Shown here piece after piece: positions 58,891 to 63,803 of a stretch of 64,000 nucleotides of DNA; the first letter of the stretch is position 1; each line of letters begins with the position of its first letter. Source of the stretch: Pseudomonadota bacterium (lineage in GTDB: Bacteria > Desulfobacterota > Desulfobacteria > Desulfobacterales > Desulfolunaceae); NCBI GenBank assembly GCA_018818835.1, contig JAHIRD010000109.1, positions 1 through 64,000 of the forward strand. The letters run 5' to 3'. The translations under genes and the position numbers were made by a program. The notes beneath the pieces were generated by a model. That model was not told the origin of the DNA. It was given only the letters and a program-made list of their open reading frames with translations, and made no database searches.

Positions 58891-58930
58891 TAGGACTCAT
58901 AGGACTTATGGGACTTATGGGACTTATGGT
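58891..58930. repeat. GGACTTATGG word repeat
   Basis: TAGGACTCATAGGACTTATG and GGACTTATGGGACTTATGG place four near-identical nine-base words in tandem. Their complement is found at 14011-14048 and a related pattern at 52521-52564. Confidence 0.75.
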
Positions 58931-58963: not shown

Positions 58964-60142
58964 ATGATGTATAATTTTATCAAGCCATGGATGATCATGG
59001 TTCTTTTTGTTTTTTGTTTGAACCTGGCGGTTTTTAACGACACGGCCGGTGCTGAAAATCTTTCCTGTGCGCGGTGTGGAAAACCCATTACACATAACTA
59101 TATCAAATCGGTCGATTTTTCATTTCATCCCCAATGTTTTACCTGCATGTTGTGTGGTAAACCCTTGAAAGATGCCATTGTTCAGGATGGCAAGGACATG
59201 TATCATCCTGATTGTCATTCCAAGGCCAAGAATCTGGTTTGTGAAGTCTGTGGGAAACCATTGGCAGAGACCTGGGTGGATGTCGATGGAAAAAAATATC
59301 ACTCCGAGTGCTATAAAAAAAACATTCAAATTCGTTGTGGGATTTGCGGAAAACCCATTGAGGGGGATTATGTCCGTGATAATGGGGTTTATCACGAATC
59401 GTGCTATAAGGAGCATAAGCTGGAGCGCTGTGTGGTCTGCTCTCGTCCCTTGGATGGCCGCCATATTGTGGATGCCTGGGGCAATAAAGCCCATGAACGG
59501 CATGGCAGTGAAGATTCGTTGCAATGCGGGTCCTGTGGTCGGATCATAGCTAAAAAAAGCTCAGGCGGAGGCTCTCGGTACCATGACGGACGGTTGATCT
59601 GTGGCATATGCAGTCGGACAGCTGTGCACAATCTGGATCACCTGAAAAAAGTCAGTGATGAAATTTTTTCTCTTTTTTCATCGGTGGGGATCATGGGTAT
59701 ACCCCGGGGCATTCCCGTTACACTGGTGGACAAGGATGGGCTGAAAAAACAAAGTGGGGTTGGCTACAATGAATCAGCCCGTGGATTTACCCTGTCATTG
59801 AGTAAGCGACAAAACACAAAAACCCTGTCCCGTGATCATACCATATTTATTTTGGAAGGACTCCCCTTGCTTGAATTTAAAGGGATTCTGGCCCATGAAT
59901 ATCTTCACGTGTGGCTGAGTGAAAACGAAATTCACCCCTCTGCCCAGGCCACCGAGGGGTTCTGCAATCTGGGTATCATGCTTGTCAATACGAATGATTC
60001 ATCGGCCCTTGCCAGGGTACTTCAAACAGAGCTGGAAAATAACCCGGATCCCATATACGGAAAGGGTTATAGGGCCATCAAGAAAAAACTGGATCAGAAG
60101 GGCTGGGAAGGTCTGATCAGATCCTTTCGATCATCACGATAG
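58964..60142 (+). CDS. Secreted LIM-domain protein with DA1-like metallopeptidase domain
   Basis: A protein of 392 residues. A signal peptide (about 1-30, ending TAGA) precedes several LIM-type zinc modules: CARC, then HPQCFTCMLC, HPDC, CEVCGKPL, HSECYK, CGICGKPIEG, HESCYK and CVVCSRPLDG, up to about residue 230. The pattern C-x2-C-x16-H-x2-C-x2-C-x2-C is a classical LIM. The C-terminal part has the metal site HEYLH (residues 311-315, LAHEYLHVWLSE) and Glu331 in ATEGFCNLGI, matching the HExxH...EEG pattern of DA1-type peptidases. DA1 proteins in plants cut ubiquitin-pathway proteins; here the product is exported. The target is unknown. No strong Shine-Dalgarno is visible. Confidence 0.82.
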   Translation: MMYNFIKPWMIMVLFVFCLNLAVFNDTAGAENLSCARCGKPITHNYIKSVDFSFHPQCFTCMLCGKPLKDAIVQDGKDMYHPDCHSKAKNLVCEVCGKPLAETWVDVDGKKYHSECYKKNIQIRCGICGKPIEGDYVRDNGVYHESCYKEHKLERCVVCSRPLDGRHIVDAWGNKAHERHGSEDSLQCGSCGRIIAKKSSGGGSRYHDGRLICGICSRTAVHNLDHLKKVSDEIFSLFSSVGIMGIPRGIPVTLVDKDGLKKQSGVGYNESARGFTLSLSKRQNTKTLSRDHTIFILEGLPLLEFKGILAHEYLHVWLSENEIHPSAQATEGFCNLGIMLVNTNDSSALARVLQTELENNPDPIYGKGYRAIKKKLDQKGWEGLIRSFRSSR

Positions 60143-60194: not shown

Positions 60195-63100
60195 TTACTT
60201 TGCGCTTCTGGACTCGGAGCAACGTCCTCCGTCAATTTCGCAGACCTTGTATTCGCCAGCACCCGAAGACCAGTAATGCCTGGAACCTTCCGGGCCTCCT
60301 GAGCCGATTCGCCGGTCGTTTTTAAACAACGACACATCGGATGTCCCGCCAGACCAGGTGATGGTCACGATATTAAAATAATAGAAACTGCGTGAGGAGA
60401 CCTGTACCTCCAGCTGGGAGTCATGAACAGCTGAAAGTGTCATGGACTTGGATACGTCTTTTCCCTGTCTGTCTGTCACTGTGGCATAAATAGTATGGGT
60501 TCCAGGTGACAGTTCAACCGTGATGAAGGCCCCTTGTCCAATATCTCCGTCACGATCTGAACGCCAGAGGATCAATGAACTCAGGTCGCCATCTTCCGGG
60601 TCAGCAGCCTTTCCTGAAAATTCGAAGACCTGGCCCTGGCTGTTTATTTCTCCCCCCATGGCCCCGAGGATTTCAAGGGTTGGCGGGACATTGAACGATT
60701 CAACCCGGATGCTGGTTCTGGCCAATGAATTGCCGCCACTCTGATCTGAAACCCGGGCCGTGATGGTATGGGTGCCTTCTGACAGGGTCACCCAGATGTT
60801 GGTGCCTTCACCGATCTGACCGTCCAGGCTTGATGTCCAGACAATCCGTGAGCCCAGGTCCCCGTCTTCCATATCCGTGGCACTTCCGGTGAAGGTATAA
60901 ACCTGGCCTTGGGTACCGGCAGCTCCGGCCTGGGCTGAAAGAATCCTGACCACAGGGTTCTGGTTGACCCAGACAAGGTTGAGGTCCTTTGTGATTTCAC
61001 ATACTGTTCCCTGGCTGTCGCTGACCCGCGCAATGATGGTATGTTGACCGTAAGGTATCAGTGTCGTGATTTCAGGGCCTGTTCCAATATCTCCCTGGGC
61101 AGTTGATGACCACTGGATGGAGGAACTCAGGTCGCCTTCTTCAGGATCCGTGGCATTGCTTGAAAAGGTATAGGTCTGGCCGTTGACCGTTGCTGCGCCC
61201 TTGACAGCACCCATGGGTGTAAGAACAGGAGGTTTATTAAGGGCCTGGATGCTGATGCTCAGTGAGGCCTCTGCCCGGTTGTTTCCGCTGTCTTTGACAC
61301 TGGCGATAAGCGCATGTGTTCCAGGACAGAGGTGGGTCTGAAGGGTTGCACCGGATCCCAGGGCACCTTGGAGATTTGATGTCCAGGATATACGTGCCGA
61401 TATGTTTCCGTCCTCGTTGTCGTCAGCCTTTGCAGAGAGTTCACAGGTTTGTCCGGAATCATCCTGGGCCTTCTCAACAACAGGAAGGATGGTGATGACC
61501 GGAGGGGCATCATAGGCTTCAATCGCAATTTCTTTGCTGGCATTCTGGGTTTTCCCGCCAGTGTCACAGACCTGGGCTAGGATGGAATGCACACCCGCTG
61601 ACAAGGTGACCGTCATGGTGGCGCCTGTGCCAAGGACTCCGTTCACGTTTGAAGACCATGAAATGGTTGAACTCAGATCCCCGTCTTCAGCGTCCGTGGC
61701 TGAGCCTTTAAAGGTGTAAACCTGTCCTTCCGGTCCAGAAGCGCCAGGGGTGGATGACATGATGGCAATTTCAGGGGCATTGTTGTACGAGCCCACGCTG
61801 AGCGTCATCGTGGTTTCAGCGGTTTTGCCCTGACTGTCCGTGACGGTTGCGGTCAACATGTGTTCGCCCGGTGACAGAGTCACCTGGATTTGTTTTCCAG
61901 TGCCAAGCTGGCCGTCCTTATTTGAGGTCCAGACTGTTTTTGAACTCAGATCCCCTTCTTCGACGTCACTGGCCGAGGCCAGGAGAGTGTAATTTTTGCC
62001 CTCGGGTCCCAGAACACCCGGGATGGACGATGTGATGGCAATGACAGGGGCTGTGTTGAATGTTTCAACGGTCAGGGGCATCCGGGTCAGGGCGTTTTTA
62101 CCCTGACTGTCCGAGATGGCTGCGGTCACACTATGTTCGCCGGGAGACAGCGTCACCCGTATCTGTTTTCCCGTGCCAAGCTGGCCGTCCTTATTTGAGG
62201 TCCAGACTATGTTTGAGCTCAGATCACCATCTTCGGTATCACTGGCCAACCCTGTAAACGCATAGGCCTGTCCTTGGGTGCCCAGGGCACCTGGGCTGGC
62301 CGATGATATGGATATTTCCGGGGCGGCATTGTAAACACCTGTAACGACAGTGATTCGTGCTTCGGCGCTTTTACCCTGGCTGTCGGTGATGAGGGCGGTC
62401 AGAATATGCTCGCCGGGGGAGAGAGTCACGGTGATGTTTGAGCCCACACCGATTTTCCCATCTTTACTGGATGTCCAGATAATGGCCGCACTCAGGTCTC
62501 CGTCCTCGGTGTCTTTGGCTGACCCAGTGAGGCAGTATTCTTGCCCTCCGATTCCCAAAGCTCCATCCTTGGCCGAGAGAATACTCAGCGACGGGGGTGC
62601 GTTCCAGGGAGCCACATAAAGTGGAAGGCTGTCTTCTCCAAGTGTTTCTTTGCTGTCGGCCACACGGGCGGTGATGGTGTGATGGCCCTGTGAAAGGGTG
62701 ACCTGGACAGTGGCTCCGCTACCTATGCCTCCATCAAGGTCAGATAGCCAAACAATCGTTGGGGACAAATCCCCGTCTTCGGCATCCAAGGCTTGGCCGG
62801 TGAGCGTATAGGGCTGACCTTGCTCGGTGGCCGTCCCCCCTTTGGCATCGAGAATAGTCATGGCAGGAGGCGCATTGTATGCCATGGCAACAACAGACAT
62901 GGAGGCCTCCCGTGATCCATTGTCCTTGTCCGTGACAATGGCGGTAATGGTATGGGCGCCCGGGGTCAGAGATACCTGAATACTCTGCCCGCTTCCCAAT
63001 CGTCCGGCCAGGTTTGAACGCCATAGGATGGTTTCACTTAGATCTCCATCTTCAATATCATTGGCTTGTCCTGTAAATGTATAGGTTTGACCTTGTGGGC

Positions 63101-63803
63101 TTGTCAGGCCGCCACTGCTTTGGATAGCTATGTCCGGAAGGGTGTTCGGTGCTTCAACGGTGACAAGCAGGGTGTCAACTCCGATATTGCCCTGGTTGTC
63201 ATCCGTGGTGGCCATGATGGTATGCAGGCCCGAGGAAAGTCTGGCAGATATATCCGAGCCTGTTCCGATCTGGCCATCAATGCTTGAGTTCCACGTAACA
63301 TCATCGGTCACAATCAGCGACTCATTATTATAGATATTTGCTGAGAATTCGGCTGGGGTGTCTTCCTGAAGTAAGGTTCCTGCTTCAGGAAGAATGATTT
63401 CAAGGGAAAGGACTGATGGGATGTCAACGCTTCCGTACGGGAGATGGGCAGTTTTGATTTCATCGGAAAAGTCACTGGAGTTCCCGCAGGCATTAAACGC
63501 TTTGACAGAATAAAAATATTCTTTGCCATCCGGGGATGCCGAAAGGGGGAATGATAGCGTTCCTGCCGGGATGGGGGCACTGTGCTCCGAGGGTGTTGAT
63601 TCGGAAGTCGTACGCCAGTAGACCACATAATAATCAGCATCCGAGTTGTTGTCCCACTGGAGAGCAGGTGCGGCTGCCCATACACCCGTTGCCGCCAGGG
63701 TGCTTATAAAAAGAATGATGAGAAATAACGCGGCTCTGGGGCTGAGCCTTGTTTGCGTATTCAGAGGCCTGTGTGAGAGGGTGATCATATATTTTTCCAT
63801 CAT
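60195..63803 (-). CDS. Exported protein with eleven tandem Ig/PKD-like repeats
   Basis: A protein of 1202 residues. A basic N-terminus and a hydrophobic signal (about 20-43, ending VWAAA) precede a fibronectin-III-like domain (about 45-135). About eleven repeats of roughly 80 residues follow (about 145-1110); each carries DAEDGDLS-like text, then VWTSNKDGQLGTG-like text and LSPGEHTITATVTDSQGK-like text. The acidic EDGDLS loop suggests calcium binding, as in PKD or cadherin-like domains. The C-terminal domain (about 1120-1202) has two Cys and an Ig-like pattern. It is probably a surface or secreted adhesive or structural protein. The start could be 63803 or an ATG 15 nt downstream. It converges with the LIM-DA1 gene. 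Confidence 0.85.
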   Translation of the reverse strand: MMEKYMITLSHRPLNTQTRLSPRAALFLIILFISTLAATGVWAAAPALQWDNNSDADYYVVYWRTTSESTPSEHSAPIPAGTLSFPLSASPDGKEYFYSVKAFNACGNSSDFSDEIKTAHLPYGSVDIPSVLSLEIILPEAGTLLQEDTPAEFSANIYNNESLIVTDDVTWNSSIDGQIGTGSDISARLSSGLHTIMATTDDNQGNIGVDTLLVTVEAPNTLPDIAIQSSGGLTSPQGQTYTFTGQANDIEDGDLSETILWRSNLAGRLGSGQSIQVSLTPGAHTITAIVTDKDNGSREASMSVVAMAYNAPPAMTILDAKGGTATEQGQPYTLTGQALDAEDGDLSPTIVWLSDLDGGIGSGATVQVTLSQGHHTITARVADSKETLGEDSLPLYVAPWNAPPSLSILSAKDGALGIGGQEYCLTGSAKDTEDGDLSAAIIWTSSKDGKIGVGSNITVTLSPGEHILTALITDSQGKSAEARITVVTGVYNAAPEISISSASPGALGTQGQAYAFTGLASDTEDGDLSSNIVWTSNKDGQLGTGKQIRVTLSPGEHSVTAAISDSQGKNALTRMPLTVETFNTAPVIAITSSIPGVLGPEGKNYTLLASASDVEEGDLSSKTVWTSNKDGQLGTGKQIQVTLSPGEHMLTATVTDSQGKTAETTMTLSVGSYNNAPEIAIMSSTPGASGPEGQVYTFKGSATDAEDGDLSSTISWSSNVNGVLGTGATMTVTLSAGVHSILAQVCDTGGKTQNASKEIAIEAYDAPPVITILPVVEKAQDDSGQTCELSAKADDNEDGNISARISWTSNLQGALGSGATLQTHLCPGTHALIASVKDSGNNRAEASLSISIQALNKPPVLTPMGAVKGAATVNGQTYTFSSNATDPEEGDLSSSIQWSSTAQGDIGTGPEITTLIPYGQHTIIARVSDSQGTVCEITKDLNLVWVNQNPVVRILSAQAGAAGTQGQVYTFTGSATDMEDGDLGSRIVWTSSLDGQIGEGTNIWVTLSEGTHTITARVSDQSGGNSLARTSIRVESFNVPPTLEILGAMGGEINSQGQVFEFSGKAADPEDGDLSSLILWRSDRDGDIGQGAFITVELSPGTHTIYATVTDRQGKDVSKSMTLSAVHDSQLEVQVSSRSFYYFNIVTITWSGGTSDVSLFKNDRRIGSGGPEGSRHYWSSGAGEYKVCEIDGGRCSESRSAK

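What the first reader, a model, noticed from the sequence alone, without database searches (positions are those of the whole stretch)
58964..60142. Exported bacterial LIM-DA1 metallopeptidase
LIM domains are rare in bacteria. Here several LIM-type zinc modules are joined to a DA1-type HExxH...E peptidase, behind a signal peptide. In plants DA1 is an intracellular ubiquitin-activated peptidase, so export to the envelope implies a different function, perhaps trimming surface proteins.
Basis: partly seen in the sequence, partly recalled or inferred. Interest (0 to 1): 0.75.

Follow-up and report, generated by a model that had tools for sequence, protein, structure and literature searches.

The report
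Exported bacterial LIM-DA1 zinc peptidase
A bacterium makes a zinc-dependent protein-cutting enzyme, related to a plant organ-size regulator, that carries a chain of zinc fingers and an export signal, so it probably cuts proteins outside the cytoplasm instead of inside the cell as in plants.

Summary
Window 58964-60142 (+) encodes 392 aa: a hydrophobic export signal, six zinc-finger sites (one canonical LIM, then four 31-32-residue finger units) and a DA1-type peptidase with HExxHx15E. Pfam LIM scores 69.9 bits and DA1-like 43.3, both over cut-off. H311, E312, H315 and E331 are invariant in 29 of 29 aligned members. AlphaFold (pLDDT 91) gives clear LIM folds and a peptidase half that best fits gluzincins, at middling scores. 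It is a real family: 9 of 340 genomes drawn from the window's class and 37 of 199 in the Neomarinimicrobiota group. A hydrophobic export-type N-terminus is kept in 28 of 29 aligned members.

The repeat-protein partner is not supported: that gene lies beside the peptidase in 1 of 14 other loci searched, within a wider syntenic block. 'Trims surface proteins' is a guess. Bacterial relatives of DA1 with LIM-like Cys pairs are already in print (PMC5322733, passages), so this is an exported variant of a known kind. Activity, location and substrate are untested.

The parts
58964..60142 (+). gene for exported LIM-DA1 peptidase, 392 aa
   Evidence: ORF; Pfam LIM and DA1-like over cut-off; family alignment of 29
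58964..59053 (+). export signal, residues 1-30, predicted cut after A28-G29-A30
   Evidence: 15-residue hydropathy 2.77; hydrophobic N-terminus in 27 of 28 homologs against 9 of 44 window ORFs; cut site is my reading
59066..59215 (+). canonical LIM domain, residues 35-84, two zinc sites
   Evidence: Pfam LIM best stretch 35-87; VIA-align Z 9.8, rmsd 1.1, 60 aligned, to LMO2
59240..59404 (+). two finger units, residues 93-147
   Evidence: ligand spacing; hairpin then helix in the model; C125, C128, H144, C147 invariant in 29 of 29
59429..59611 (+). two C-terminal finger units, residues 156-216, probably the 'LIM-like' part of DA1
   Evidence: C156, C188, C191, C213, C216 invariant in 29 of 29
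59642..60133 (+). DA1-like peptidase domain, residues about 227-390
   Evidence: Pfam DA1-like stretches; pLDDT block means of 90 or more; gluzincin matches Z 7.8-9.0
59894..59956 (+). catalytic motif H311-E-Y-L-H315-x15-E331
   Evidence: H311, E312, H315, E331 invariant in 29 of 29; on helices 302-320 and 327-343 in the model
60195..63803 (-). convergent neighbour: Ig/PKD-like repeat protein, 1202 aa, with a hydrophobic N-terminus; probably not a functional partner
   Evidence: Pfam Big_9, PKD_4, DUF4399; related gene (42% identity) beside the peptidase only in L036 among 14 loci

Best explanation
It is an exported zinc metallopeptidase of the DA1-like family. Shown by sequence: the gene, an export-type N-terminus and its conservation, six zinc-finger sites, and invariant active-site residues. 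Inferred: after export the finger array (3 to 6 sites across the family) binds a peptide segment or partner protein, the last finger pair docks on the peptidase domain and presents the substrate, and the zinc held by H311, H315 and E331, with E312 as base, cuts that protein at a specific place in the periplasm or on the surface. The most likely role is limited, selective processing of envelope or extracellular proteins, without ubiquitin.
For: LIM and DA1-like both over cut-off; 28 of 29 members match DA1-like and 25 of 29 LIM at E 0.01. H311, E312, H315, E331, G332 invariant in 29 of 29. HExxHx15E has the spacing of HEMMHX15EE in plant DA1 (PMC5322733, passages). Hydrophobic N-terminus in 27 of 28 homologs against 9 of 44 ORFs of the window. 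Model pLDDT 91.1, pTM 0.73; peptidase half aligned to an M1 peptidase (6koz, Z 9.0, rmsd 3.1, 138 aligned) and to ACE2 entries. One DA1-like gene in the window's genome. In plant DA1 a change of one LIM-like Cys abolished activity on BB, so the fingers matter there.
Against: No activity, location or substrate is shown; selectivity is inference. Gene neighbours differ between lineages, so no partner is indicated. One homolog (L011) lacks the hydrophobic N-terminus. I chose the homologs' start codons. The plant Cys mutant also lost ubiquitylation, so its loss of activity need not reflect substrate reading. Foldseek's 50 listed rows show no peptidase, and VIA-align's Z 7.8-9.0 for the peptidase half is only a little above the typical best Z of 7-8 that its note gives for models without a clear match.
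Confidence: 0.6

Rival explanations
1. It is a secreted digestive protease that breaks down proteins for nutrition; the fingers only hold onto substrate or matrix.
For: Export-type N-terminus; the fold rows include a bacterial collagenase (8jt1, Z 8.8, rmsd 3.6, 152 aligned).
Against: One DA1-like gene in the window's genome; only four residues between the predicted cut site and the first finger Cys, so no room for an inhibitory propeptide; plant DA1 cuts defined regulators.
Confidence: 0.2
2. It processes the convergent Ig/PKD repeat protein next door, for example trimming it at the surface.
For: Both proteins have hydrophobic N-termini and both occur in the same 2 of 8 genomes of the family, side by side.
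Against: The repeat gene lies beside the peptidase in 1 of 14 other loci; the shared block also holds GNAT, MscS and a glnD-like gene, so co-occurrence may be plain synteny.
Confidence: 0.1
3. It is delivered to other cells, as a toxin or effector, where a cytoplasmic target is cut.
For: Exported relative of a family whose plant members cut intracellular regulators.
Against: An N-terminal signal stands directly before the fingers; I recognised no delivery or immunity gene in the neighbourhoods inspected, but did not search for them specifically.
Confidence: 0.07
4. It is mainly a zinc-storing or scaffold protein and the peptidase domain is not active.
For: 24 metal ligands in the array by my count.
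Against: The catalytic residues, including the non-ligand base E312, are invariant in 29 of 29 rows, which a scaffold would not need.
Confidence: 0.03

Closest known systems
Plant DA1/DAR peptidases (ubiquitin-activated, PMC5322733, passages)
   Same: LIM, LIM-like fingers and a C-terminal peptidase; HExxHx15E spacing; Pfam DA1-like.
   Different: Export-type N-terminus, no UIM among Pfam matches, a longer and variable finger array.
Bacterial DA1 relatives, e.g. of Roseiflexus (PMC5322733, which cites Burroughs et al. 2011; the 2011 paper is not held)
   Same: Bacterial sequences highly similar to DA1's conserved C-terminal region, with four CxxC/H pairs. The 2011 abstract, as I recall it, already links prokaryotic LIM domains to membrane-associated peptidases that process proteins.
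   Different: Whether those carry an export signal or a variable array could not be read here.
Gluzincins, such as M1 aminopeptidases and ACE2 (M2)
   Same: HExxH helix followed by a helix with the third ligand; Z 7.8-9.0 over roughly 130-190 aligned residues.
   Different: 9-16% identity in the listed rows; here the domain is short and follows zinc fingers.

Membership tests
Pfam DA1-like (PF12315) | profile score over the curated cut-off | tested here: met
   43.3 bits against 25
Pfam DA1-like (PF12315) | HExxHx15E zinc peptidase motif | tested here: met
   H311, H315, E331 with x15; invariant in 29 of 29; plant motif in PMC5322733
LIM domain (PF00412) | profile score over cut-off and double zinc site with 2-residue junction | tested here: met
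   69.9 bits against 22.9; ligands 35/38/55/58 and 61/64/81/84; only this first domain has canonical spacing
LIM domain (PF00412) | LIM fold | tested here: met
   model residues 31-90 match LMO2, Z 9.8, rmsd 1.1, 60 aligned; Foldseek top rows are LIM proteins
Gluzincin metallopeptidases | HExxH on one helix and the third ligand Glu on the next | tested here: met
   helices 302-320 and 327-343 hold H311/H315 and E331; ligand distances could not be measured
Gluzincin metallopeptidases | gluzincin fold clearly above unrelated folds | tested here: inconclusive
   M1, M2 and collagenase rows at Z 7.8-9.0; no peptidase among Foldseek's 50 listed rows
Plant-type ubiquitin-activated DA1 | ubiquitin-interacting motifs | tested here: inconclusive
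   no UIM among Pfam matches up to E 1; the motif is short and easily missed
Plant-type ubiquitin-activated DA1 | intracellular location | tested here: not met
   predicted only: export-type N-terminus in the window protein and 27 of 28 aligned homologs
Plant-type ubiquitin-activated DA1 | latent until ubiquitylated | not testable with these tools
   needs biochemistry

The most novel reading that the evidence does not exclude
An exported family of selective peptidases that reads its substrates with an adjustable chain of 3 to 6 zinc-finger sites, present in two distant bacterial groups, and representing the pre-ubiquitin form of the DA1 machine: finger-guided proteolysis came first, ubiquitin control was added in plants.
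Probability: 0.2. Interest if true: 0.6.

Novelty: new variant of a known kind. Interest (0 to 1): 0.4.

Why it matters
Plant DA1 genes control organ and seed size (abstracts listed), but no DA1 peptidase is among the PDB chains matched by sequence. Compact bacterial relatives without ubiquitin control could be easier to purify and solve, and could show what the LIM-like fingers do to the peptidase. If the exported form is active, finger-guided selective proteolysis also works outside the cytoplasm.

Tried and rejected
Repeat-protein partner: searched in 14 loci with wider flanks, out of 30 homolog loci at hand; only L036 has it (phmmer E 1e-3). Some of the 14 end close to the gene (L037 is 5,089 bases), so a miss there is weak. 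In the window's family the repeat gene and the peptidase occur in the same 2 of 8 genomes, but those two also share the surrounding block, so no partnership is claimed.

A different conserved neighbour: I read the ORFs around the 14 loci by eye and scanned a few with Pfam. Two same-genus genomes have a PilZ gene upstream and lipoprotein-like genes downstream that share 34% identity over 165 residues; I saw nothing that carries across lineages.

Direct DA1 superposition: no DA1 chain among PDB matches by sequence nor among the listed Foldseek and VIA-align rows; absence there proves nothing. Model coordinates are not given, so zinc geometry was not measured.

Plasmids: tblastn found no match. 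NCBIfam: no family over cut-off. Spread in further phyla was not tested: the one genome-contig scan returned 2 loci, and the genome search reaches only groups around known handles.

Tree (31 rows): the window-order rows need 2 changes and are not one clade, with long branches L010, L011, L012; six of the nine (window, L007, L008, L009, L055, L056) group together at 91/95, under the tree's own star limit. Vertical descent against transfer is left open.

Literature: ten searches, lists capped at 6 to 20 rows; no listed title or abstract start treats an exported bacterial LIM-DA1 protein. The library lacks most subscription journals and the 2011 survey. Passages of PMC3710099 and PMC3482391 did not mention LIM-DA1.

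Full report
What is there. The ORF 58964-60142 on the + strand is real and 392 aa long. Pfam finds LIM (69.9 bits, cut-off 22.9) and DA1-like (43.3 bits, cut-off 25); no NCBIfam family reaches its cut-off. By ligand spacing I count six zinc sites before the peptidase: a canonical LIM (35-84) and four further Cys/His units starting at 93, 125, 156 and 188. A self-comparison of residues 89-218 gives its best score, 32, at a shift of 63 residues, against a maximum of 19 in 1000 shuffles, so the latter four units look like two finger pairs. The peptidase motif is H311-EYL-H315-x15-E331.

Family. The window protein found matches in 7 of 146 genomes drawn from its order and 2 of 297 from its phylum, own genome included in both; a profile of alignment A1 found 9 of 340 drawn from its class. 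Centred on the genome of L001, a Neomarinimicrobiota record, it found 37 of 199; 22 of those 37 entered the alignment (20 loci plus L001 and L002), the other 15 were not read. The tools tell no kinship between the two groups; none of the 199 seems to have been drawn in the earlier searches (handle numbers), so I take them as different phyla (inference). Alignment A1 has 29 rows: the window and 28 homologs. L006, a weak match, was dropped: no LIM or DA1-like Pfam match was found in it. H311, E312, H315, E331, G332 and nine finger ligands are invariant in 29 of 29; C334, beside the active-site Glu, is in 90% or more. Of the 29 rows, 28 match Pfam DA1-like and 25 LIM at E 0.01. Two later homologs, L055 and L056, show the same architecture by eye. 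Finger sites number from 3 (L002) to 6 (window, L007, L009, L015, L016) by my count of the motif list.

Export. The threshold was set after the fact, at the lowest value of the passing homologs (mean Kyte-Doolittle 1.79 over 15 residues within about the first 60). By it 27 of 28 homologs pass, and so does the window protein at 2.77; of 44 window ORFs 9 pass, this protein and the repeat protein among them. I chose the homologs' starts, so the count leans towards a signal; in 17 or more rows the first finger Cys lies within residues 25-31, right after the hydrophobic stretch. The exception, L011, has a short polar start and lies near PP2C and protein kinase genes.

Structure. AlphaFold gave mean pLDDT 91.1, pTM 0.73. 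Foldseek's listed PDB rows are nearly all LIM proteins and contain no peptidase. VIA-align gives LMO2 at Z 9.8, rmsd 1.1, 60 aligned, for residues 31-90. For residues about 220-392 it gives an M1 peptidase (6koz, Z 9.0, rmsd 3.1, 138 aligned), many ACE2 entries, a bacterial collagenase and a Shewanella lipoprotein of unknown function, at Z 7.8-9.0. Its note puts the typical best Z of models without a clear match at 7-8, so the fold match alone is modest; the sequence family and the motif carry the claim. H311 and H315 lie on helix 302-320 and E331 on helix 327-343.

Surroundings. In the window the order is a glnD-like gene (my reading), MscS channel, GNAT acetyltransferase, the peptidase, then the convergent Ig/PKD repeat gene. 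The same-family genome G311 has the same order, read by eye, with a repeat protein 42% identical over 1073 positions. Of 14 other loci searched only this one has the repeat gene, so the partner idea rests on synteny in one family. The window genome carries dsrA over cut-off (568.6 bits against 392.85), so it probably reduces sulfite or sulfate without oxygen (inference), and has one LIM locus at E 0.01.

Mechanism. Most likely: exported, zinc-loaded, finger-guided peptidase that makes selective cuts in envelope or extracellular proteins. The signal-like N-terminus, fingers and active-site conservation are shown from sequence; export itself, catalysis, location, selectivity and target are inferred. 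In plant DA1 the HEMMH motif is needed for cleavage, and a Cys change in the LIM-like fingers abolished activity on BB, though it abolished ubiquitylation too (PMC5322733, passages).

Known or new. PMC5322733 (passages) reports high similarity of DA1's conserved C-terminal region to Roseiflexus sequences with four CxxC/H pairs and cites Burroughs et al. 2011; that paper is not held. Its abstract, which I recall only, ties prokaryotic LIM domains to membrane-associated peptidases that process proteins. So the kind is known; what is added here is the conserved export-type N-terminus, the variable finger number and the spread in the window's order and in Neomarinimicrobiota. Whether the 2011 survey already had exported forms I cannot tell.

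Verdict. Observation confirmed; interpretation partly supported; interest 0.4.

Noticed in passing
L039 516-2909, 2909-4372 and 6338-7288 (G417): A LIM-DA1 homolog without export signal sits downstream of a PP2C phosphatase gene and a protein kinase gene; a cytosolic branch tied to phospho-signalling is possible.
   Followed up: partly
L035 7703-11156 and L037 2030-5087: In two genomes of one genus the peptidase gene lies between a PilZ-domain gene and a lipoprotein-like gene; the two latter proteins share 34% identity over 165 residues, and one matches GDSL lipase.
   Followed up: partly
L006 1-2178 (G080): An HExxH segment after a Cys-rich stretch in a long frame (1302 aa), with no Pfam LIM or DA1-like match at E 0.01.
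   Followed up: no
about 58892-58929: Short near-tandem GGACT(C/T)AT units just upstream of the peptidase gene.
   Followed up: no
G000 contig C232:30474-34461 and C155:19533-19823: Stretches related to the neighbour repeat protein elsewhere in the genome: repeats on C232, one part with an internal stop, and on C155 a 151-aa frame matching only its N-terminal part.
   Followed up: no
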